IMG/VR virus record: IMGVR_UViG_3300042562_000534
Span: 1-24,554 of that record
Direction: 5' to 3' (one strand)
Length of the DNA stretch: 24,554 nt
Source of the DNA: a virus
Below the pieces are notes generated by a model, which did no database searches, was not told the DNA's origin, and saw only the letters and a program-made list of their open reading frames with translations. Positions 8,300-24,333 of the stretch are shown in pieces (within the stretch, counting starts at the first letter, position 1; each line of letters opens with the position of its first letter). A program made the translations under genes and the position numbers.

Positions 8300-8326
8300 T
8301 TTTATTTAATTTGATTGTTAATTAGT

Positions 8327-8397
8327 AGCAACGTATCAGAGTCGAACTGATTTAAGCGGGCTTATGAGACCCGTGAGATACCTTACCTCCCACCTGC
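8327..8397 (-). tRNA. tRNA-like gene, anticodon CAU (Met), weak acceptor stem
   Basis: On the minus strand there is a convincing anticodon arm, CGGGT / loop CTCATAA / GCCCG (4 pairs plus a G-T pair) with T33, anticodon CAT and A37. The T arm ATCAG / TTCGACT / CTGAT is perfect, and a D arm GAGG...TCTC encloses a GG-containing loop. No CCA is encoded. The acceptor stem is poor: GCA pairs with TGC and one G-T pair follows, but the lower three positions do not pair. In an alternative register the outer five bases TAGCA/TGCTA (8395-8399 with 8326-8330) pair perfectly. It may be a decayed or unusual tRNA-Met/Ile-type gene. It fills most of the gap between two genes. Confidence 0.6.
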
Positions 8398-8411
8398 TAT
8401 TTACGTATTTA

Positions 8412-11705: not shown

Positions 11706-12065
11706 TTATTTTATTTTTTTGTAAATTATTGTAGTATTGATTGGTCCTTTAACAGAACACTCTAAAGTATTATTATCAATAAAAGCATATGAACATTCAG
11801 TTACCCAATTTTTCTCATCAAATATTGATTTCACAACTAAAATATCGTTTTTTAATTTCATAGACAATAATCTTAAAGGAGTTCCACTAGTGGTGCTAAA
11901 TTGTACCAATTGTAAATTACCTTTAACATCATTCCAAATTACTAACTGAGCGGATGATTCATTAGGTTCCCAATAACCAATTAAGTCTTCAGTTGTAAAT
12001 TTTACTTGAGCATTAATATTCAAACTTAATAATGCAACTACAATAATAAAGAATACTTTTTTCAT
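11706..12065 (-). CDS. Small secreted protein with Sec signal peptide
   Basis: A 119-residue protein. Residues 1-20 form a textbook signal peptide: two Lys, a hydrophobic core and Asn-Ile-Asn-Ala-Gln, with cleavage expected after Ala19, a Bacteroidota-typical site. The roughly 100-residue mature part (Gly-Tyr-Trp-Glu-Pro early, alternating beta pattern) resembles small lipocalin-like periplasmic proteins of that phylum; this is tentative. No lipobox is present. It has its own 44-bp leader with a promoter-like motif, so it may be an independently expressed cargo gene, for instance one acting on the host envelope or against superinfection. Its function is unknown. Confidence 0.75.
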   Translation of the reverse strand: MKKVFFIIVVALLSLNINAQVKFTTEDLIGYWEPNESSAQLVIWNDVKGNLQLVQFSTTSGTPLRLLSMKLKNDILVVKSIFDEKNWVTECSYAFIDNNTLECSVKGPINTTIIYKKIK

Positions 12066-13533: not shown

Positions 13534-13790
13534 ACAACAATTACAACATCCTGTAACTTTATTACTTTATAATCATTGCCATCAAAATCAATTCCGTGGC
13601 CTGCGCTTTTATCGTAATAGATAACATCACCAACACTTAATGATTTTATATCTTCACTTATAGAAACTATAATAGCTTCTTTATATCTTATATTTTCTTT
13701 GTCTTTTTCCGCTAAAAGCAATCCGCCTTCTGTTTTGCTTAACCCGGTTTTCTTTGCTGATATTATAATATTATTACCTATTGCTTTCAT
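13530..13790 (-). CDS. groES: Co-chaperonin GroES
   Basis: 86 residues, slightly shorter than host GroES (about 95). It shows the family layout: an N-terminal strand (Asn-Asn-Ile-Ile-Ile-Ser), a mobile-loop region with Thr-Glu-Gly-Gly-Leu-Leu-Leu near 20-26, Val-Gly-Asp-Val-Ile-Tyr-Tyr at about 53-59, and an end of Lys-Leu-Gln-Asp-Val-Val-Ile. It should cap GroEL and release substrate into the closed chamber. It overlaps groEL by 4 bp and lies downstream of it, the reverse of the usual bacterial groES-groEL order. Confidence 0.88.
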   Translation of the reverse strand: MKAIGNNIIISAKKTGLSKTEGGLLLAEKDKENIRYKEAIIVSISEDIKSLSVGDVIYYDKSAGHGIDFDGNDYKVIKLQDVVIVV

Positions 13791-15331
13791 GATACGCGTA
13801 AGTTGTTAATTACACAATCAGTTGACAATATTGTAACAGCTACAGACGATGCATTTCTTAGTGCAGACTTAGTAACCAATAATGGATCAATAATTCCAGC
13901 CTCAATCATGTTTACATATTCATTCGTAATAACATTTAAACCATGCCCGTCAGCGCTAAGCTCTATTGCATAACTAATACCAGCATTGTTTAATATTGTT
14001 TTATATGGAGCTTGAATGGCTTTTAACAAAACCTCTCCGCCTATATCTAGCACACCAAAGTTTTTTGACGCATCTAACAAAGCTATTCCTCCTCCTGGCA
14101 CAATGCCTTCTTTGATAGCAGCTTTAGTTGCGCAAATTGCATCTTCGACTCTATCCGCTTTTTCTTTTAACTCTATATCAGATCCAGCTCCTACTTTTAC
14201 AACTGCAACTTTAGCAGACAATCTAGCGAGTCTTTTTTCTAATCTAATAACTTCTCCTGGGTTTAATTTACCTTCTAGTTCTCCTTTAATTTGATCAATT
14301 AAACTTTGAACATCTTCAGTAACTCCTCCAACTTGAATTATAGTTTCAGAATCATCGGTTGTACTTTTTAAACAACTACCTAAATGCTCTGGTTGGATAA
14401 GATCCATATCGTCTCCGAGATCTTCATTTATAATAGTTGCCCCGGTTAATAATGCTAGATCCATTAATGTATCTTTTTTACTGATACCATAAGTAGGGGC
14501 ATTAATTACATTAACCTTTATATTGCCTTTTACTTTATTCATGGCTAGGGTAGCCAAAACATTAGTTTCAACATCGGCAATAATAAGCAAAGACTTATTT
14601 GTTTTCACAACATATTCCAATACAGATTGTATTTGCCTAACATTCTCAACAGGCGATTCAATGATTAAAACTAAAGGATTATCAAGTTCTGCAATCCTTT
14701 TATTTGGATTAGTTATAAAATGTGAATTAACTAATCCTTTGTCATAAGGAACCCCGTCAATAATCTCTATTTCTGTTTCTGGCAGAGCAGACACTTCCAT
14801 CATTACTATTCCGTTTTCGCCAACGGCCCTAAAAGCATCAGCAATAATCTTACCAAGTACTGGATCATTATTTGTAGATATAGTTGCAATATTGTCAATC
14901 ATATCTCCTGTAACCGGAACCGCAATAGATTCTAAATAGGTTATAACCGCATTAGTCATTGATTCAATCCCGTCTTTTAATTCTCTAGCGTTAGTTTTAG
15001 ATTGCACTTTATAAGCTTCTTCTAAAATAGCGTGAGCTAATACTGTAGCGGTCGTGGTTCCATCCCCGGCCTCTTTAACTGTTTTACGGGCAGCCTCTTT
15101 TAAAAGTCTTGCGCCCATATTTTCAACTGGGTCAAGTAGGATAATACTATCCGCTACTGTAACTCCGTCTTTAGTTATAATTGGTCTACCTTGATTATCT
15201 TCTAGCATTACACATTTACCGCCAGCTCCTAAGGTTGAACTTACCGCTTTGGTTAATTTAGTAATACCTTCAAAAACTTTGTTCTGAGCTTCCAACCCAA
15301 AACTAAGATTTTTAACTATTGCATCTGACAT
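13787..15331 (-). CDS. groEL: Chaperonin GroEL
   Basis: A 514-residue chaperonin that folds proteins by ATP-driven encapsulation. Diagnostic motifs are kept: Ile-Thr-Lys-Asp-Gly-Val-Thr-Val (Asp55, equivalent to E. coli Asp52), Gly-Asp-Gly-Thr-Thr-Thr-Ala at 89-95 (Asp90), and Asp-Arg-Val-Glu-Asp-Ala followed by Glu-Gly-Ile-Val-Pro-Gly-Gly-Gly at about 393-415 (Asp397). All three ATP-handling aspartates are therefore present. The Gly-Gly-Met tail of host proteins is absent and the protein ends soon after the last equatorial helix. The usual Leu-Gly-Pro-Lys-Gly is Leu-Gly-Ala-Gly-Gly. It lies between lysis and virion genes with a 60-bp leader of its own. Clients are probably virion proteins, by inference. 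Confidence 0.95.
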
Positions 15332-20019: not shown

Positions 20020-20784
20020 TTATTTTGTGCTATATTTTTTACCGCTTTCACTCTTAGTACCATTCCCATCGTTACCTCTATTCCTTTTAGCCGTCTCCCA
20101 CTGTTGGTCTTCATGGTCCCAATCTTTACCTTTACCACTAGGATCCGCTCGATGCTTTCTTTGCGCATGTGCCTTCTTTGCCCTTCTATCATCTGTCTTA
20201 GCAAACGCCAAATCTCTATCCGCTTTAGCCTTAGCTGCCTTAGGAGATAACTTTTGTTTTAATAAAGGGGATTTCTTTTTACGAGCCAACATATCTTTAG
20301 CAGTCTCTGTGCCTATGCCACTAGTCCCATACTTCTCAACATTAGATACTACATTCTTTTTATTAGAAACACTACCTATAGCATTGTTGACAATATCTTT
20401 ACCCATTTCCTGTAACCCATTTATAATACCATTCTCGCTATTGAACGAAGCAACCTCATGCGCTGCTCCTAAAACATTAGCTCCTATGCCTCCAGCAATA
20501 TTGCCAAGGATTCCCCCACCTAACTTTTTAGATATAGCTTGGCGCGTATACATACTAGCAGCCGCGTGCCTAACCTTATCAGCCTTCATGTCATCTCCTT
20601 TATTTCTTGCCGTATAATCATCAGCAATAGACTGAGCCCTAGTCTCAGGGTATCCTAAAGTCTTATCAACACGCTCCTCAAGTCCGTATACTTTTTTGTA
20701 TACCTTATCAGAACCCTTATCGTAAAGCGTAGGCTTATTCTTATCCTGATATAGAGGTGATTGATTTCTTAATTTAAACGCCAT
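20020..20784 (-). CDS. Basic virion-type protein with Arg-His...His-Glu motif; first leftward gene
   Basis: A 254-residue protein, Lys/Ala-rich and basic. Residues about 65-113 hold Asp-Lys-Val-Arg-His-Ala-Ala-Ala-Ser, a Gly-rich hydrophobic stretch (Gly-Gly-Gly-Ile-Leu-Gly-Asn-Ile-Ala-Gly-Gly), and Leu-Gly-Ala-Ala-His-Glu. An Asp-X-X-Arg-His...His-Glu pairing is a motif I associate with DUF6973-like segments in phage structural and toxin-type proteins; this is tentative. The C-terminus is charged and low in complexity. It starts Met-Ala-Phe-Lys, like the small metallopeptidase. It heads the leftward block, so it is read first from the divergent region. Confidence 0.75.
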   Translation of the reverse strand: MAFKLRNQSPLYQDKNKPTLYDKGSDKVYKKVYGLEERVDKTLGYPETRAQSIADDYTARNKGDDMKADKVRHAAASMYTRQAISKKLGGGILGNIAGGIGANVLGAAHEVASFNSENGIINGLQEMGKDIVNNAIGSVSNKKNVVSNVEKYGTSGIGTETAKDMLARKKKSPLLKQKLSPKAAKAKADRDLAFAKTDDRRAKKAHAQRKHRADPSGKGKDWDHEDQQWETAKRNRGNDGNGTKSESGKKYSTK

Positions 20785-20794
20785 AGTATATGTT

Positions 20795-20817
20795 ATTTAT
20801 AATCTATACAATTACGC
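20795..20817 (-). promoter_or_regulatory. Candidate late promoter for the first leftward gene
   Basis: On the minus strand GCGTAAT (20817-20811) is followed nine bases later by TATAAAT (20801-20795), about 11 bp before the ATG at 20784. The same pair of motifs stands before the secreted-protein gene. If this is a promoter the leader is very short. Confidence 0.3.
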
Positions 20818-20836
20818 ATTGTAATCAATTCTCACA

Positions 20837-20884
20837 GTGTGACATTAGCCTACTATTTTTATATATAACTACCTTACGTCACAC
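20837..20884. repeat. GTGTGAC palindrome, copy 1 (diverged)
   Basis: The 5' arm GTGTGACATTAGCCTACTA and 3' arm ending GTCACAC pair over seven perfect outer bases, then imperfectly. The 5' arm matches copies at 22825 and 22934 almost base for base. A TTTT follows on the plus strand. It lies inside the divergent region, where a plus-strand terminator has no obvious upstream gene; on the minus strand it would fall in the leader of any transcript starting near 20987. Confidence 0.7.
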
Positions 20885-20972
20885 TTTTCGTTCATTTATT
20901 ATAACCAATCGCTGTATGTCTATTGTAATAAGATGCAAAAAAAAATATTATAAAAAATTTTTATGAGTGTTG

Positions 20973-20992
20973 AAAAAATGTTATTACAAATA
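20973..20992. repeat. Direct repeat, first copy
   Basis: AAAAAATGTTATTACAAATA occurs exactly here and again at 21015-21034, 42 bp apart start to start (about four helical turns). It could be a binding site pair or a promoter duplication. Confidence 0.8.
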
Positions 20993-21020
20993 TATATATA
21001 AGGGAAATGTATTCAAAAAA
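20987..21020 (-). promoter_or_regulatory. Candidate host-type (Bacteroidota sigma) leftward promoter
   Basis: On the minus strand a TTTTTTG (-33-like, 21020-21014) is followed by a 19-bp spacer and TATATTTG (20994-20987). This fits the published Bacteroidota consensus TTTG - about 19 bp - TAnnTTTG. It points to the leftward block, with a leader of about 200 bp containing the palindrome at 20837-20884. In A/T-rich sequence chance matches are possible. Confidence 0.45.
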
Positions 21021-21034
21021 TGTTATTACAAATA
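21015..21034. repeat. Direct repeat, second copy
   Basis: This is an identical 20-bp copy of 20973-20992. It overlaps the -33-like element of the leftward promoter candidate; the sequence beyond it differs (AAGGAG instead of the TA tract). Confidence 0.8.
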
Positions 21035-21139
21035 AAGGAGTAAGGGGTTACATACTACGTTTAGCCTCTCCTTTTGCATAGGGAAACGAATTGTGTTTAC
21101 CCCACCCCCCCAACGATTTATGGGTTTACCCAAAATGAT

Positions 21140-21420
21140 TTACCTTTTCCGGTGCGTGTGTGATACGATCTAGCTATCTCGTGTATGATATGTGTATGTA
21201 TATGGCATGATGCGTTTAGCGCGACGATATACGCGCTGTGGCGTGTGTATGATATGTTATATGATTGCATGCGATATGGCATTGCGTGTATGTTATACTA
21301 GATGATGTGCATTGTGTTGAGCTATAGCAGGTGTGTGTACATATGATGCACGATATGGTGTGGTAATGTGTATTACGTTGCACTCTTGCATGCTAACAGT
21401 GTTACCTCATCGTGCTGCAT
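21140..21420. other. G/T-rich, mostly alternating purine-pyrimidine segment
   Basis: About 280 bp dominated by interleaved short words such as GTGTATGATATG (near 21181; GTGTGTATGATATG near 21244), GATATGGCAT and GCGTGTAT, largely alternating purine and pyrimidine, with clearly higher GC than its surroundings. A small inverted repeat AGCGCG...CGCGCT sits near 21219-21238. No open reading frame of note runs through it. Such sequence is prone to Z-form or unwinding and is a candidate origin or regulatory region. Confidence 0.5.
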
Positions 21421-21449
21421 CATATCTAATAACGCGGAGCAACGCGGAG

Positions 21450-21472
21450 CGTGTATAGCAACGCGTATAGCA
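21450..21472. repeat. 23-bp exact direct repeat, copy 1
   Basis: The segment (starting CGTGTATAGCAACGCG and ending GTATAGCA) is identical to 23134-23156, 1684 bp away, and a shortened form GTGTATAGCAA lies at 21773-21783. All three precede a rightward promoter-like element, here ending 6 bp before it. Confidence 0.8.
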
Positions 21473-21478
21473 AATCCC

Positions 21479-21518
21479 TACAGTCTAAGTACGACCTAGA
21501 TCTGATAATATATATGAA
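21479..21518 (+). promoter_or_regulatory. Early promoter-like element A
   Basis: TACAGTCTAAG, then TACGACC, then TGATAATATATATGAA. TACA and TGATAAT are 24 bp apart, as in all eight copies. The ATG of the 29-residue gene is 45 bp after TGATAAT. GTATAGCAA lies 5 bp upstream, as in copy B. Confidence 0.75.
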
Positions 21519-21547
21519 TATAAATACTAACAATAAATAAATTAACT

Positions 21548-21637
21548 ATGAATAATCTAATTAACAATCTAGAATTAAGAATTAAAGTTGCCTTTAAAAA
21601 TCAGGCCATATTGGAATCATTAGGACTTTATAAATAA
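21548..21637 (+). CDS. Micro-protein, 29 residues
   Basis: The first rightward gene after element A. It is helical-looking, with Asn/Leu-rich and basic parts (Leu-Glu-Leu-Arg-Ile-Lys-Val-Ala-Phe-Lys) and ends Ser-Leu-Gly-Leu-Tyr-Lys. Its leader (AAATAAATTAACT before the ATG) closely resembles that of the gene at 24154, supporting expression. The function is unknown. A different frame just after the stop (21645-21683) reads Leu-Thr-Glu-Glu-Gln-Ile-Asp-Tyr-Ile-Ser-Lys-Ile, so a longer ancestral protein broken by a frameshift is possible. Confidence 0.5.
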   Translation: MNNLINNLELRIKVAFKNQAILESLGLYK

Positions 21638-21662
21638 ATATAAGTTGACTGAAGAACAGATA

Positions 21663-21685
21663 GATTATATATCTAAGATATAATC
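21663..21685 (+). other. Perfect inverted repeat (8-bp arms)
   Basis: GATTATAT and ATATAATC flank a 7-base loop just after the first micro-gene, and 13 bp further on there is a terminator-like hairpin. It may be a transcript-end structure or a remnant. Confidence 0.5.
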
Positions 21686-21698
21686 AGGTCTAATATTT

Positions 21699-21720
21699 AA
21701 CCCTATTACTTGGGTTTTAT
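21699..21720 (+). terminator. Rho-independent terminator-like hairpin
   Basis: AACCC and GGGTT form a stem around an 8-base loop, followed by a TTTATT run. It is placed after the first micro-gene and before element B, so it would end that short transcript. Confidence 0.6.
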
Positions 21721-21749
21721 TACTCTCTCTAGGGGGAATTGACAGGCGG

Positions 21750-21774
21750 AGCCGTGGCTTAACCCCATCGGGGT
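21750..21774 (+). other. Two small hairpins upstream of element B
   Basis: AGCC-GT-GGCT (21750-21759) and ACCCC-ATC-GGGGT (21762-21774) are adjacent. With GCGGAGC just before them and GTGTATAGCAA right after, they form a GC-rich block in the 225-bp gap before the next gene; GCGGAGC and GTGTATAGCAA also precede element A. They may be regulatory or part of an untranslated RNA. Confidence 0.4.
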
Positions 21775-21788
21775 GTATAGCAAGTTCT

Positions 21789-21828
21789 TACAGTCTAGGC
21801 ACGACAAGTAAATGATAATATATATGAA
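21789..21828 (+). promoter_or_regulatory. Early promoter-like element B
   Basis: TACAGTCTAGG, CACGACAAG, TGATAATATATATGAA with the invariant 24-bp spacing. GTATAGCAA stands 5 bp upstream, exactly as in A. The next ATG (21863) is 50 bp after TGATAAT. Confidence 0.75.
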
Positions 21829-21862
21829 TTAAATAAATAATAACAATCTAAATAAATATAAA

Positions 21863-22045
21863 ATGACTTTAAAAATCAATCAAAATTTCAAATCTTTAAT
21901 TAATTCAATATTAATTAATTCTAATAAATTAGAACATTCTTTTTTTATATTAAATAATAATTTAGTAATAAATAAAAATGACCTAGAACAGGTTGATAAA
22001 TTATTGACTAGAAATCTTTATAAATATAAAGTTCTACAGTCTTAA
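21863..22045 (+). CDS. Small early protein, 60 residues
   Basis: A polar, Asn/Lys/Leu-rich protein of alternating helical character (Asn-Lys-Asn-Asp-Leu-Glu-Gln-Val-Asp-Lys-Leu-Leu-Thr-Arg). There is no membrane segment or motif I recognise. It starts at an ATG with an A-rich leader downstream of element B. Its last four codons (Val-Leu-Gln-Ser plus stop) are read from the start of element C, so gene end and next promoter overlap. It is likely an early host-interaction protein, by position only. Confidence 0.65.
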   Translation: MTLKINQNFKSLINSILINSNKLEHSFFILNNNLVINKNDLEQVDKLLTRNLYKYKVLQS

Positions 22046-22074
22046 TACGGACAGTAAATGATAATATATATGAA
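22035..22074 (+). promoter_or_regulatory. Early promoter-like element C
   Basis: TACAGTCTTAA, TACGGACAG, TGATAATATATATGAA; 24-bp spacing. It overlaps the 3' end of the 60-residue gene. The next ATG (22112) lies 53 bp after TGATAAT. Confidence 0.75.
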
Positions 22075-22111
22075 TAAAGAAATTAATAATAATAAATAAA
22101 TCAAATAAAAA

Positions 22112-22318
22112 ATGGAACAATCTAAATTATCTAAAAAGGAATTAAAAAGGTTATTAACTAAGCAAGGCCTAATACAGTTATTAGAAGACCTAAATAATAA
22201 CCCAGACCTATACCCAACAGAAGAGGAAGAGGACCAGATAGCTGATTACTATGGAGTCTTAGTAGACGGTGAAGACCATAAGGTATGGCTACAGTTTATA
22301 ATAAATAACTATGCCTAA
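22112..22318 (+). CDS. Small acidic early protein, 68 residues
   Basis: It starts with a Lys/Leu-rich helix (Ser-Lys-Lys-Glu-Leu-Lys-Arg-Leu-Leu) and turns strongly acidic in the middle (Thr-Glu-Glu-Glu-Glu-Asp), then Trp-Leu-Gln-Phe-Ile-Ile-Asn near the end. No family is recognised. Acidic mini-proteins are common among phage early genes as inhibitors or DNA mimics, but nothing specific supports that here. It is preceded by element C and followed by a terminator-like hairpin, so it is probably monocistronic. Confidence 0.7.
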   Translation: MEQSKLSKKELKRLLTKQGLIQLLEDLNNNPDLYPTEEEEDQIADYYGVLVDGEDHKVWLQFIINNYA

Positions 22319-22324
22319 TACCCC

Positions 22325-22355
22325 TAAGCCTAAGTAAGCTTTAAAAAGGCTTTAT
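22325..22355 (+). terminator. Terminator-like hairpin after the 68-residue gene
   Basis: TAAGCC and GGCTTT pair across a loop of about 17 bases (an inner AAGC/GCTT pairing is an alternative), followed by TATTAT. It separates the acidic gene from element D. Confidence 0.45.
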
Positions 22356-22359
22356 TATC

Positions 22360-22399
22360 TACAGTCTTAATACGACCTAATAATGATAATATAATTGAA
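22360..22399 (+). promoter_or_regulatory. Early promoter-like element D
   Basis: TACAGTCTTAA, TACGACCTA, TGATAATATAATTGAA; 24-bp spacing. The ATG at 22434 is 50 bp after TGATAAT. Confidence 0.75.
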
Positions 22400-22433
22400 T
22401 ATAAATAATAATAATAATCTAAATATAATAAAG

Positions 22434-22802
22434 ATGAACAAATTTAAAAAAGAAGTAGTAGTTGAAGTAGTTGAAGTAGTAAAAACTAACAAAGAATTAT
22501 TAGTAGAAGCAATTGCAAAATTAAGTCCTGAAGACTTAGCTTTAATATATCCGCCAATTGAACGAGCTAACTTTGTAGTAAGAAAAAGTTGGTTTGGCCG
22601 TAATCAAGTTATAAGCTTTGTTAATAACAAAAATAAAAAGATAACTTACAATCATGATGAAGTATTAAAAGTAATGCTACCTAAACTATCTATAATGCCA
22701 TGTTGGATTAAAAGAGAATACTGGTCGCAATCTACTGATATGCCAAGTAATGTTAGACACTTAGCTAAAGTTGAATTGTTAGAAGTAGTTGAGGTTGTAT
22801 AA
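22434..22802 (+). CDS. Early protein, 122 residues, Glu-Val repeats at both ends
   Basis: The start is the ATG at 22434; an in-frame TTG at 22395 lies inside element D and is rejected. Both ends carry Val-Glu-Val-Val-Glu-Val-Val-like repeats (residues about 8-16 and the last ten), giving matching repeated DNA (GAAGTAGTTGAAGTAGT near 22460 and a similar stretch near 22780). The middle has Ser-Pro-Glu-Asp-Leu-Ala-Leu-Ile and a basic, aromatic-rich part (Arg-Lys-Ser-Trp-Phe-Gly-Arg, Trp-Ile-Lys-Arg-Glu-Tyr-Trp). No known family is recognised. The repeats could be a coiled or beta oligomerisation element. It is followed by a palindromic hairpin. Confidence 0.75.
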   Translation: MNKFKKEVVVEVVEVVKTNKELLVEAIAKLSPEDLALIYPPIERANFVVRKSWFGRNQVISFVNNKNKKITYNHDEVLKVMLPKLSIMPCWIKREYWSQSTDMPSNVRHLAKVELLEVVEVV

Positions 22803-22824
22803 GCCTCTTCTATTGTCTAAAATA

Positions 22825-22871
22825 GTGTGACGTTAGCCTACTATTATTAGTTTAATAGCCTAGTGTCACAC
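22825..22871 (+). terminator. GTGTGAC palindrome, copy 2; terminator-like
   Basis: GTGTGAC...GTCACAC forms a stem of about 16 positions with wobble pairs and one C-C mismatch, since both arms contain TAGCCTA. It is followed by TTTT on the plus strand, 22 bp after the 122-residue gene. It probably ends that transcript; the A/T context on the left could also serve leftward transcripts. Confidence 0.65.
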
Positions 22872-22933
22872 TTTTACAAAGTAACTAAAATGTAGTATAA
22901 TTTAACGATGCATAGTGTGTGGAAACTACCAAT

Positions 22934-22988
22934 AAATGTGTGACGTTAGCCTACTACTTATACCTTAATAGCCTAGTGTCACACATTT
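22934..22988. terminator. GTGTGAC palindrome, copy 3; symmetric, possibly bidirectional terminator
   Basis: The stem extends to AAATGTGTGAC...GTCACACATTT with the same TAGCCTA C-C mismatch inside. The arms are conserved with copy 2 while the loop (CTTATACC region) differs, which suggests that the stem is what is selected. The A/T flanks are symmetric. No gene ends within 130 bp on its left, so a protein-binding or RNA-processing role is equally open. Confidence 0.6.
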
Positions 22989-23133
22989 ACAATACATAGA
23001 CATCGATCTCTACATACAGCGGCAAATAAGGCTACTCCAGTCTCCGGTCCTAATCTGTATATATGTTTTCGAGCAAGCTCTTCTGAGTATATAACCTCAA
23101 CACGTTGTAATTATCACGGGTCTTTACCCGACA

Positions 23134-23156
23134 CGTGTATAGCAACGCGTATAGCA
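23134..23156. repeat. 23-bp exact direct repeat, copy 2
   Basis: Identical to 21450-21472. Here it ends 15 bp before element E instead of 6 bp before element A, so spacing is not fixed. Confidence 0.8.
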
Positions 23157-23171
23157 TCCGCTAAAGCCACT

Positions 23172-23211
23172 TACAAGCACAATACGGGAGTATATTGATA
23201 ATATATACGTA
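23172..23211 (+). promoter_or_regulatory. Early promoter-like element E (diverged)
   Basis: TACAAGCACAA, TACGGGAG, TGATAATATATACGTA; 24-bp spacing kept although the GTCT part is lost. No strong gene follows; the nearest ATG is at 23228. Confidence 0.65.
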
Positions 23212-23227
23212 GCCTGGCACTGAGATA

Positions 23228-23323
23228 ATGACCGGAAGAGTAGACTCCGTCCTACCTATATCCCAGTATATCGATCTTTACCTGCATTTATACCCTTACA
23301 GTCTGAATACGACCTCAATATGA
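23228..23323 (+). CDS. Possible micro-protein, 31 residues (weak)
   Basis: An ATG frame 32 bp after TGATAAT of element E, running through element F and stopping inside its TGATAAT. The composition (Tyr/Leu/Pro/Ser-rich, Ile-Asp-Leu-Tyr-Leu-His-Leu-Tyr) is unlike neighbouring proteins, and the leader lacks the usual A-rich pattern. The segment may instead be an untranslated RNA. Confidence 0.25.
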   Translation: MTGRVDSVLPISQYIDLYLHLYPYSLNTTSI

Positions 23324-23336
23324 TAATATATATGTA
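23297..23336 (+). promoter_or_regulatory. Early promoter-like element F
   Basis: TACAGTCTGAA, TACGACCTC, TGATAATATATATGTA followed by ACAAAG; 24-bp spacing and close to consensus. The nearest ATG (23355) is 34 bp after TGATAAT. Confidence 0.75.
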
Positions 23337-23354
23337 ACAAAGCAACGATAATTG

Positions 23355-23453
23355 ATGTTGATGTGGTTGAAAAGCCTTGCAAACAAAGGGATTCTTGGTT
23401 ATACCATTATCTCTTTAAATTCGATTAAACGAGTAACAACCTTCTTACAATAA
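23355..23453 (+). CDS. Possible micro-protein, 32 residues
   Basis: An open frame from ATG 23355 (second ATG at 23361) with a hydrophobic-basic character (Met-Trp-Leu-Lys-Ser-Leu-Ala-Asn-Lys-Gly-Ile-Leu-Gly-Tyr). It ends on bases belonging to element G, the same gene-end/promoter overlap as at 22035-22045. It could be a membrane-associated peptide. The lack of any other product after the strong element F favours it, but it is too short to be sure. Confidence 0.4.
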   Translation: MLMWLKSLANKGILGYTIISLNSIKRVTTFLQ

Positions 23454-23485
23454 CAATACGATGTAAGAATGATAATATAAGTGTA
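23446..23485 (+). promoter_or_regulatory. Early promoter-like element G
   Basis: TACAATAACAA, TACGATGTA, TGATAATATAAGTGTA then ACAAAA; 24-bp spacing. It drives the run of three small genes and the tRNA; the ATG at 23512 is 42 bp after TGATAAT. Confidence 0.7.
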
Positions 23486-23511
23486 ACAAAAACAAACTAA
23501 AACAAATAAAT

Positions 23512-23610
23512 ATGAGACGTTATTCAAGTGCAATTAGAGTGGTATTATTAACCATCAAAAAAGAGTTCTTAATTCAAGCGAAATATGCGGCTATGGCCTT
23601 AAGAAGCTAG
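23512..23610 (+). CDS. Micro-protein, 32 residues, basic helix
   Basis: ATG to TAG, with an A-rich leader (AACAAATAAAT). The sequence is a probable single amphipathic helix: Arg-Arg-Tyr early, Val-Val-Leu-Leu-Thr-Ile-Lys-Lys-Glu in the middle, Ala-Ala-Met-Ala-Leu-Arg-Ser at the end. It is the first of three closely spaced small genes. No family is recognised. Confidence 0.5.
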   Translation: MRRYSSAIRVVLLTIKKEFLIQAKYAAMALRS

Positions 23611-23637
23611 TATAAACAAATAAAAAATAGATAAATT

Positions 23638-23745
23638 ATGGAAAGTGATTGTTGTGGAGCGTACTCAAGTTGCTCAGAAGATATAGATATATGTCCAGAT
23701 TGTGGTGAACATGCAGATTGGAATGAATGTGAAGATGAATATTAA
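23638..23745 (+). CDS. Cys-rich acidic micro-protein, 35 residues, zinc-ribbon-like
   Basis: Six Cys in 35 residues (5, 6, 12, 19, 22, 31), including Cys-Pro-Asp-Cys-Gly-Glu-His at 19-25, a half zinc-ribbon or knuckle pattern, with an acidic tail (Glu-Cys-Glu-Asp-Glu-Tyr). A tiny metal-binding protein that contacts a host enzyme or nucleic acid is a fair guess, not proven. It starts 27 bp after the previous gene with an A-rich leader and precedes the 75-residue gene by 12 bp. Confidence 0.6.
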   Translation: MESDCCGAYSSCSEDIDICPDCGEHADWNECEDEY

Positions 23746-23757
23746 ATAAAGTAAATT

Positions 23758-23985
23758 ATGATAGGAGATTTTGAAATAGTAGAGTATACAAATCCGTATT
23801 ATCCGGATGTAGTAATGTATAAAGTTTTAATTAACAATAGAGAATTTCACACCGATGATTATGGTAGATTGATCGATTGGGCAATAGAAGTATTAGCAGA
23901 TGAACCTAATCAAATTGAACGTCAAGCAATCACAGATAAAGCGGTTGAGTCATTCTTTAAAGATAGTAATACAAGTAAAGATTAA
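23758..23985 (+). CDS. Small acidic early protein, 75 residues
   Basis: The N-terminal half looks beta-rich (Asp-Phe-Glu-Ile-Val-Glu-Tyr; Val-Met-Tyr-Lys-Val-Leu-Ile), with Asp-Asp-Tyr-Gly-Arg-Leu-Ile-Asp-Trp in the middle and a helical C-terminal half. It is acidic, with no motif I recognise. It is followed 6 bp later by a tRNA on the same strand, so gene and tRNA probably share one transcript from element G. The function is unknown. Confidence 0.75.
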   Translation: MIGDFEIVEYTNPYYPDVVMYKVLINNREFHTDDYGRLIDWAIEVLADEPNQIERQAITDKAVESFFKDSNTSKD

Positions 23986-23991
23986 ATAAAA

Positions 23992-24086
23992 AGTCAGGTG
24001 GGTGTAATGAGGAAAGGTTCCAAGCCCTTTAAATAGGTTATCTAATCCGTCTAGAACGGTATCCGGTTCGAGTCCGGCCCTGACTA
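23992..24086 (+). tRNA. Class II tRNA, probably Leu (anticodon UAA)
   Basis: A perfect 7-bp acceptor AGTCAGG/CCTGACT with discriminator A, T8-G9, a GG-containing D loop, and a T arm CCGG/TTCGAGT/CCGG. A long variable region includes hairpin CCGT-CTAGA-ACGG, so the RNA is class II (Leu, Ser or Tyr type). The best anticodon arm is AGCCC / TTTAAAT / AGGTT with T33 and anticodon TAA, which with A73 fits Leu. It has one C-A mismatch next to the loop and a weak D stem. No CCA is encoded. It may supplement host decoding of A/T-rich Leu codons. Confidence 0.7.
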
Positions 24087-24095
24087 CAAAGTGTT

Positions 24096-24135
24096 TACAA
24101 TCAAGACACGATAAAGAATTGATAATATAAATGTA
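24096..24135 (+). promoter_or_regulatory. Early promoter-like element H
   Basis: TACAATCAAGA, CACGATAAAG, TGATAATATAAATGTA then ACAAAT; 24-bp spacing. It starts 9 bp after the tRNA; the ATG at 24154 is 34 bp after TGATAAT. Confidence 0.7.
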
Positions 24136-24153
24136 ACAAATAAATAATTAACT

Positions 24154-24333
24154 ATGAAGAATATTAAATTTCTAAAAAACAATTTTATTAAAGTGAACGG
24201 TGTGCTATACACGCCTTATACCGTCGGCGAATTACCAAGTACTTTTGGTTTCATTTACAATGCGGATAAAGACCAAACCGGCACTGCCCAATGGTTCAAT
24301 TTTAAAGGTTTAACTTATATAATTAAACAATAA
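24154..24333 (+). CDS. Small early protein, 59 residues
   Basis: A short, probably beta-rich protein (Phe-Ile-Lys-Val-Asn-Gly-Val-Leu-Tyr-Thr; Phe-Gly-Phe-Ile-Tyr-Asn-Ala-Asp-Lys; ending Tyr-Ile-Ile-Lys-Gln). The leader TAAATAATTAACT before the ATG closely matches that of the first micro-gene. Its codons include more GC-ending triplets than neighbouring early genes. It overlaps the next ATG by one base (TAATG). No family is recognised. Confidence 0.65.
   Translation: MKNIKFLKNNFIKVNGVLYTPYTVGELPSTFGFIYNADKDQTGTAQWFNFKGLTYIIKQ

What the first reader, a model, noticed from the sequence alone, without database searches (positions are those of the whole stretch)
21479..24135. Eight copies of an unfamiliar early promoter-like element with invariant 24-bp spacing
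At 21479, 21789, 22035, 22360, 23172, 23297, 23446 and 24096 the plus strand carries TACA(GTCT)-N-AA-(T/C)ACG(AC)-N-TGATAATATA(TATGTA). TACA to TGATAAT is 24 bp in every copy, the middle (T/C)ACG is at a fixed offset of 11, and the bases between differ. Each copy is followed 32-53 bp later by an ATG, and none was noticed in the leftward block. It does not match the Bacteroidota consensus TTTG-N19-TAnnTTTG or a standard -35/-10 spacing. A dedicated polymerase (crAss-like phages carry a virion RNA polymerase) or a modified host enzyme may read it. Alternatively it marks RNA processing sites.
Basis: partly seen in the sequence, partly recalled or inferred. Interest (0 to 1): 0.82.

Follow-up and report, generated by a model that had tools for sequence, protein, structure and literature searches.

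The report
Phage sigma factor's private promoter class
The eight repeats are switch-on sites (promoters) in a virus of marine or freshwater Bacteroidetes-type bacteria; the same sites occur in dozens of related uncultured viruses, which also carry their own sigma factor, a protein that probably steers the host's RNA polymerase to exactly these sites.

Summary
Eight plus-strand copies of TACA-N8-ACG-N10-GATAATA lie at the stated places (chance expectation 0.02), with none on the other strand. They are one case of a promoter class found in a large group of uncultured 50-70 kb podovirus-like phages. Nine near-whole relatives carry 8-16 copies each, always on the non-structural strand. Spacing is invariant (107 exact-core copies, all N8/N10). 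In 838 copies one base is almost always G or A. Taking it as +1 puts GATAAT at -12 to -7, ACG at -25 to -23 and TACA at -37 to -34; start codons peak at about +20 to +23. 45 of 50 motif-bearing contigs encode a ~253-aa sigma-70-family factor; the other five end just downstream of the motif array. Searching from the sigma gene, 74 of 80 loci carry the motif, on the sigma strand. Six motif-free relatives lack the sigma, and host genomes lack the motif. A ~206-aa helix-turn-helix gene sits just upstream of sigma. The motif varies in concert within genomes. No virion RNA polymerase was detected. I conclude that host core polymerase plus phage sigma reads the motif. The sigma gene lies beyond the window's edge (inferred by synteny). 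Timing ('early') is not shown.

The parts
21479..21519 (+). promoter copy 1: TACA(-37..-34) .. TACG .. GATAAT(-12..-7), predicted +1 = G at 21516; ahead of a 29-aa ORF starting at 21549
21789..21829 (+). promoter copy 2, predicted +1 = G at 21826; ahead of ORF 21863-22045 (60 aa, homologue in relative G002)
22035..22075 (+). promoter copy 3, predicted +1 = G at 22072; ahead of ORF 22112-22318 (68 aa)
22360..22400 (+). promoter copy 4, predicted +1 = G at 22397; ahead of ORF 22434-22802 (122 aa, 88% identical to G002 29230-29595, which also follows a motif copy)
23172..23212 (+). promoter copy 5, predicted +1 = G at 23209; ahead of a 31-aa ORF starting at 23228
23297..23337 (+). promoter copy 6, predicted +1 = G at 23334; ahead of a 32-aa ORF starting at 23355
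23446..23486 (+). promoter copy 7, predicted +1 = G at 23483; ahead of a 32-aa ORF starting at 23513
24096..24136 (+). promoter copy 8, predicted +1 = G at 24133; ahead of ORF 24154-24333 (59 aa; homologue G002 34028-34207)
20785..21478 (.). divergent intergenic region between the leftward structural block (first ORF ends at 20784) and the rightward block that carries all eight copies

Best explanation
Each copy is a promoter of one phage-specific class, read by the host's core RNA polymerase carrying a phage-encoded sigma-70-family factor. The sigma's region 2 recognises the -10 element GATAAT (-12 to -7), with initiation at a purine at +1. The two upstream boxes, TACA (-37 to -34) and AAYACGA (-28 to -22), are contacted by sigma region 4 and/or by the ~206-aa helix-turn-helix protein encoded just upstream of the sigma gene. 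The rightward non-structural genes are thereby transcribed as many short units with ~20-nt or somewhat longer leaders, including in relatives the operon that encodes the sigma itself (positive feedback). Shown here: the motif, its strand and intergenic placement, its rigid spacing, the near-strict purine, co-occurrence with the sigma and HTH genes, and concerted variation. Inferred: that it is transcribed, that this sigma (not another factor) reads it, the role of the HTH protein, and that the window's phage has the same sigma. In the closest long relatives the sigma lies beyond the part matching the window; in G002 it starts 4.2 kb after the homologue of the window's ORF at 24154.
For: (1) 8-16 copies per relative, all on one strand, none in three motif-free relatives or shuffles; 50 contigs: motif on one strand bar single stray copies, reversed-pattern controls 0-1. 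(2) Fixed spacing: 107 copies at N8/N10 on the early strand, none on the late strand. (3) 838 copies: position +1 is G 66% / A 34%; A-11 and T-7 99-100%; ORF starts peak at +20 to +23. (4) 115 of 123 copies intergenic. (5) Sigma-70-family protein in 45 of 50 motif contigs, E 1e-105 to 1e-148; PHROG 351 sigma factor E 3e-21 to 7e-24, Pfam Sigma70_r2 6.5e-5, PDB best hit FliA 1e-6, Foldseek top 50 all sigma factors or their complexes. (6) Search from the sigma side: 74 of 80 viral sigma loci carry the motif; 446 copies on the sigma strand against 1. (7) Six motif-free relatives have neither. (8) Motif essentially absent from 100 Flavobacteriaceae genomes. (9) Concerted variation: position -13 within-genome identity 0.80 vs 0.32 shuffled, z 41, against z about 0-3 in most of the spacer; whole boxes replaced in all copies of single genomes. 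(10) The sigma has an intact region 4, which fits a promoter with upstream elements; in the phiEco32 / 7-11 phages, loss or presence of region 4 goes with loss or presence of the upstream element (PMC8948821).
Against: No transcript data. The window itself does not contain the sigma. Motif, sigma, HTH and the giant protein co-occur across the same lineage, so co-occurrence alone does not single out sigma. Covariation of sigma region 2.4 residues with the -13 base is only suggestive and confounded by phylogeny. TACA lies ~3 bp further upstream than a normal -35 element, and two boxes one helical turn apart are more than one sigma region 4 should read. Genomes L184/L198 lost the TACA box without an obvious change in the sigma recognition helix. 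A second, late-strand element (about ACGTAATAHTAATA) exists and could be the sigma's target instead. How the first sigma is made is unexplained if its own operon depends on it.
Confidence: 0.75

Rival explanations
1. The motif is read by a phage-encoded RNA polymerase carried in the virion (N4- or crAss-like); the giant 2.2-3.0 kaa protein of the structural block would be the candidate.
For: The giant protein is present in all nine motif-bearing contigs and has no BLAST match in motif-free relatives, so it co-occurs as well as sigma does. Strict motif conservation also fits a dedicated polymerase.
Against: No RNAP match by Pfam, PHROGs or PDB profile search, no DxDGD motif; an HExxH motif and a weak polynucleotide-kinase match (PHROG 415) instead. 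The AlphaFold2 model is poor (pLDDT 54), gives no significant fold match and so cannot decide. The -12/-7 element, purine +1 and ~40-bp footprint look like a bacterial holoenzyme promoter.
Confidence: 0.07
2. The host's own holoenzyme (sigma A or an alternative host sigma), alone or with a phage activator such as the HTH protein, reads the motif as early promoters; the phage sigma serves the late genes through the ACGTAATAHTAATA element.
For: Phage sigmas often serve middle or late genes; a late-strand element exists (12 late: 1 early over ten contigs); the motif-controlled block is the non-structural one; this would solve how the first sigma is made.
Against: The motif is essentially absent from 100 Flavobacteriaceae genomes and unlike the TAnnTTTG, sigma-54 and ECF-type motifs mapped in Flavobacterium psychrophilum (PMC9723704). 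A sigma with regions 2 and 4 fits the multi-block motif better than the short late element. Relatives of the group that lack the sigma also lack the motif.
Confidence: 0.15
3. The motif is an RNA-processing or other RNA-level signal in a long transcript.
For: It would also sit between genes on one strand.
Against: The first copies lie at the head of the block with no same-strand gene upstream; the 9-10 nt spacer is free in sequence but fixed in length; the pattern has -10-like and purine-start features.
Confidence: 0.03

Closest known systems
phiEco32-like phages (phi32_gp36; phage 7-11 SaPh711_gp47) and their promoters
   Same: Podovirus-type phages that encode a sigma-70-family factor redirecting host core RNAP to phage-specific promoters; 7-11 promoters are bipartite and its sigma has region 4 (PMC8948821).
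   Different: Different lineage and presumed hosts (gammaproteobacteria there); single-element tAATGTAtA or bipartite GTAAtg-(16)-aCTA motifs there, on middle/late genes; here three blocks with zero spacing variation, on the non-structural block, with an HTH partner gene.
sigma-28 (FliA) promoters, consensus TAAAGTTT-n11-GCCGATAA (PMC2859248)
   Same: The core -10 element GATAA(T) with G at the upstream edge; FliA (1rp3) is the best PDB sequence match of the phage sigma.
   Different: No TAAA element at the FliA position, no GCC extended -10; TACA and AAYACGA boxes instead.
T4 middle promoters (MotA/AsiA sigma appropriation, PMC6755090)
   Same: A -10 element plus an upstream box read by a phage DNA-binding protein that acts together with sigma region 4.
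   Different: T4 re-uses host sigma-70 and has no sigma of its own for this class; no MotA or AsiA homologue was identified here.
Bacteroidota sigma A promoter (TTTG-N19-TAnnTTTG)
   Same: Similar position of the -12 to -5 element relative to the start.
   Different: No TTTG at either element; the motif is essentially absent from host genomes.
Crassvirales virion RNA polymerase
   Same: Phages of Bacteroidota with GroEL-type chaperonin genes in the wider neighbourhood.
   Different: No DxDGD RNAP found, and no crAss-like phage among the portal matches.

Membership tests
Sigma-70-family factor (the protein in relatives) | sequence homology over regions 2 to 4 | tested here: met
   PHROG 351 RNA polymerase sigma factor, E 3e-21 to 7e-24, residues ~17-242; Pfam r2 6.5e-5 just below the gathering score (23.1 vs 24 bits), r4 0.054; PDB FliA 1.1e-6
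Sigma-70-family factor (the protein in relatives) | sigma fold | tested here: met
   AF2 mean pLDDT 75; Foldseek top 50 all sigma factors or sigma-RNAP complexes, E ~1e-6; TM-scores are low (0.25-0.34), as expected if the domains are placed differently
Sigma-70-family factor (the protein in relatives) | binds core RNAP and directs initiation | not testable with these tools
   needs biochemistry
Phage-sigma-dependent promoter class | multiple phage copies upstream of genes, one strand, not found in host | tested here: met
Phage-sigma-dependent promoter class | motif and sigma co-occur across genomes, both present or both absent | tested here: met
   45/50 and 74/80 with exceptions that are mostly truncated contigs; 0/6 relatives with either
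Phage-sigma-dependent promoter class | sigma-dependent transcription from the motif | not testable with these tools
   needs in vitro transcription
sigma-28 promoter | TAAA -35 element and GCCGATAA -10 at n11 (octamers) | tested here: not met
   only the GATAA core matches
Bacteroidota sigma A promoter | TAnnTTTG -7 box | tested here: not met
   consensus GATAATATAWATG
Virion RNA polymerase (crAss/N4 type) | an encoded RNAP catalytic domain | tested here: inconclusive
   none found by sequence; the fold model of the giant protein was too poor to decide
T4-type sigma appropriation | MotA and AsiA homologues | not tested
   no dedicated search; no such match appeared among the family scans of the proteins examined

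The most novel reading that the evidence does not exclude
A two-protein promoter-recognition system in a large uncultured phage group: a phage sigma factor reads the -10 element GATAAT, while a co-encoded helix-turn-helix partner (gene directly upstream, often overlapping) reads the TACA and TACG boxes one helical turn apart, giving a rigid composite ~44-bp promoter whose three blocks have been re-targeted separately in different phages.
Probability: 0.35. Interest if true: 0.75.

Novelty: new variant of a known kind. Interest (0 to 1): 0.62.

Why it matters
Phage-encoded sigma factors are known, but few have a defined promoter class and, as far as I found (papers searched), none has been described for these flavophage relatives. 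The sigma has no close homologue in 50,697 sequenced phages (best 30% identity), while at least 390 environmental viral contigs encode it. The motif lets one predict transcription starts and small, probably host-takeover, genes in these genomes. Its concerted drift within genomes offers a natural series for working out how sigma and promoter co-evolve. The orthogonal, compact promoter and sigma could be useful for expression tools in Bacteroidota.

Tried and rejected
Virion RNA polymerase: looked for DxDGD motifs in all ORFs of at least 250 aa, family and PDB scans of the giant protein, AF2 of its conserved C-terminal 1200 aa (pLDDT 54) and a fold search: nothing, not decisive. A sigma-region-2-like stretch in the giant protein (KYDPxxGIPLAAYINKYL) was considered: profile comparison with the phage sigma gave probability 0.3%, rejected. 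T7-promoter likeness (TAATACGA): the motif is too long and has -10 / +1 features; treated as coincidence, and no single-subunit RNAP match appeared in the proteins scanned. Motif in motif-free isolates (MW202828, elemoF, Panino): absent, best score below 1 against 30-55 in carriers. Host use: two hits at up to 1 mismatch in 100 Flavobacteriaceae genomes. Host-type TTG-N17-23-TAnnTTTG promoters as starters: no clear excess. Sigma residues co-varying with the -13 base: positions 62, 64, 107, 112 and 120 stand out weakly, confounded by phylogeny. Rfam on the window: nothing up to E 1. My first pattern had a spacer of wrong length; it was corrected.
Full report
OBSERVATION. TACA to TGATAAT is 24 bp start to start, ACG is at a fixed offset, and an ATG follows 32-53 bp after TGATAAT (sequence). 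The window is a 24,554-base virus record, a fragment: a leftward structural block (capsid, portal, terminase, GroEL-like and tail ORFs, named from the sequences and relatives) and, from ~21.5 kb, a rightward block of small ORFs.

THE MOTIF IS WIDESPREAD. An exact-pattern scan of IMG/VR returned 118 stretches. At up to one mismatch in the core they hold 596 copies with almost complete strand coherence per locus. In 50 whole contigs the loose pattern is found on one strand (3-16 copies in nearly all), with at most one stray on the other strand; the reversed-pattern control gives 0-1. A weight matrix built from 500 distinct copies finds 8-16 copies per near-whole contig on one strand, none on the other, none in shuffles, and none in three motif-free relatives (the matrix was trained on motif loci, so the carriers are not an independent test). 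Spacing is rigid: over ten contigs 107 exact-core copies at N8/N10 on the early strand and 0 on the late strand; nearly all other spacer combinations give 0, the largest being 6 at N11/N7. 115 of 123 copies are intergenic.

ANATOMY. In 838 distinct copies one position is G 66% / A 34% with essentially no C or T, preceded mostly by T. Among 412 copies taken from sigma loci two had T there. Taken as +1, GATAAT falls at -12 to -7, with the two bases that sigma factors flip out (A-11, T-7; established knowledge) at 99-100%. ACG is then at -25 to -23 inside AAYACGA (-28 to -22), and TACA at -37 to -34. (T/Y)AC(A/G) thus recurs 11 bp apart, about one helical turn. First in-frame ATGs of ORFs of at least 30 codons peak at +20 to +23. 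All eight window copies have G at this +1 (read). The +1 assignment is inferred, not measured.

Conserved non-structural genes were listed for two reference contigs. One, ~253 aa, is a sigma-70-family factor: PHROG 351 at 3e-21 to 7e-24 over regions 2 to 4, Pfam region 2 at 6.5e-5, just under the curated cut-off, PDB best hit FliA, and an AF2 model (pLDDT 75) whose top 50 Foldseek matches are all sigma factors or their complexes. A profile search finds it in 45 of 50 motif contigs. In the five without it the motif array runs to 0.15-3.8 kb of the downstream contig end (G024 151, G046 453, G048 2833, G011 3810, G007 855 bp), so the gene is probably cut off. In the reverse direction, not selected by motif, 390 viral stretches encode the sigma. 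Of the 80 kept, 74 carry the motif; over 87 loci, including seven from genome bins, there are 446 copies on the sigma strand, 1 on the other and 0 in shuffles. Of the six without, five have sigma within ~3 kb of the contig edge, and the sixth (L195) has two exact copies on the sigma strand elsewhere in the contig. Six sequenced relatives (MW202828, elemoF, Panino, phi38:1, phi18:3, Gundel_1) have neither motif nor sigma. The pattern hits 2 of 100 Flavobacteriaceae genomes, once each. No close sigma homologue exists in 50,697 phage records (best 30%).

A SECOND GENE. A ~206-aa protein with a C-terminal helix-turn-helix (weak Pfam matches) is encoded on the same strand just upstream of sigma in 82 of 87 sigma loci, often overlapping it; four of the five exceptions have sigma within 0.9 kb of the locus start. 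It is a candidate for reading the upstream boxes; this is inference from gene order and from the two-box geometry.

CONCERTED VARIATION. Copies within a genome resemble each other far more than copies between genomes at specific positions: at -13 the within-genome identity is 0.80 against 0.32 shuffled (z 41), while spacer positions -20 to -17 give z between -0.5 and 3.4. Single genomes have changed a block in nearly all copies: TACA replaced and AGGTT-like sequence gained in L184/L198, the ACG box decayed in L241, GATATT for GATAAT in L216. This is what one trans-acting reader per genome predicts. The sigma residues behind it could not be named: positions 107 and 120 in region 2.4 and 62/64 stand out weakly, and the box-1 change of L184/L198 has no clear counterpart in the sigma recognition helix, which leaves room for the HTH protein.

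WHY SIGMA AND NOT A POLYMERASE. No DxDGD motif was found, no crAss-like phage is among the portal matches, and the giant protein has no RNAP match. Its fold model is too poor to decide. The sigma-type geometry and the sigma gene favour host core RNAP with phage sigma. The remaining serious rival gives the phage sigma to late genes: a short element around ACGTAATAHTAATA precedes several late operons (12 late-strand against 1 early-strand matches). The sigma's complete region 4 and the motif's absence from hosts argue that sigma reads the multi-block motif, but only transcription assays can settle this.

THE WINDOW ITSELF does not contain sigma. Its closest long relatives by portal, contigs G002 and G027 (83%), do. 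Window ORFs 21863, 22434 and 24154 match G002 28466, 29230 and 34028, and the G002 sigma starts at 38439, so it is expected about 4 kb beyond the window's right edge.

NOT EXPLAINED. How the first sigma molecules are made if its operon depends on the motif (host-type promoter, virion delivery or read-through); whether transcription is early or middle; what the 29-32 aa ORFs behind several copies do.

KNOWN RELATIVES. Functionally closest are the phiEco32-like phages, whose sigma factors read single-element or bipartite promoters (PMC8948821). The -10 core resembles the sigma-28 GCCGATAA (PMC2859248). The possible sigma plus activator arrangement recalls T4 middle promoters (PMC6755090). None matches in full. 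I rate it a new variant of a known kind.

Noticed in passing
window 9181 and 12450 on the reverse-complement coordinate (upstream of the GroEL ORF at 13787-15331 and of ORF 11706-12065, - strand): A second, short repeated element around ACGTAATAHTAATA precedes several late operons in the window and relatives, on the late strand (12:1 over ten contigs); a candidate late promoter.
   Followed up: partly
window 20837, 22825, 22938 (+): Three long hairpins, GTGTGACRTTAGCCTACTA...TAGCCTAGTGTCACAC, near the divergent region and inside the early block; similar hairpins lie between the blocks in relatives G003, G010, G027, G030, G044 and G046. Function unknown (terminator, origin or transcript feature).
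   Followed up: partly
window about 8325-8398 (- strand): Cloverleaf-like element with a CAT anticodon-like loop, missed by ARAGORN and Rfam; similar elements lie upstream of the homologous ORF in G019 and G027.
   Followed up: partly
window 23992-24088 (+): A second tRNA-like element (acceptor-like ends AGTCAGG/CCTGACT, T-arm-like GGTTCGAGTCC) just before motif copy 8.
   Followed up: partly
L153:8380-17190 (-), L142:1116-10145 (+), L145:2086-8718 (+): Giant 2.2-3.0 kaa protein at the end of the structural block of relatives: HExxH motif, PHROG 415 polynucleotide-kinase-like stretch in some, well-conserved C-terminal ~700 aa of unknown fold; no BLAST match to the giant protein of motif-free relatives.
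   Followed up: partly
window 21549, 23228, 23355, 23513 (+): Very short ORFs (29-32 aa) each directly behind a motif copy; possible host-takeover peptides.
   Followed up: no
G021 (129,537-base contig): Two different copies of the sigma gene (20760-21524 and 83045-83800) on one contig; possibly a concatenated or chimeric assembly.
   Followed up: no
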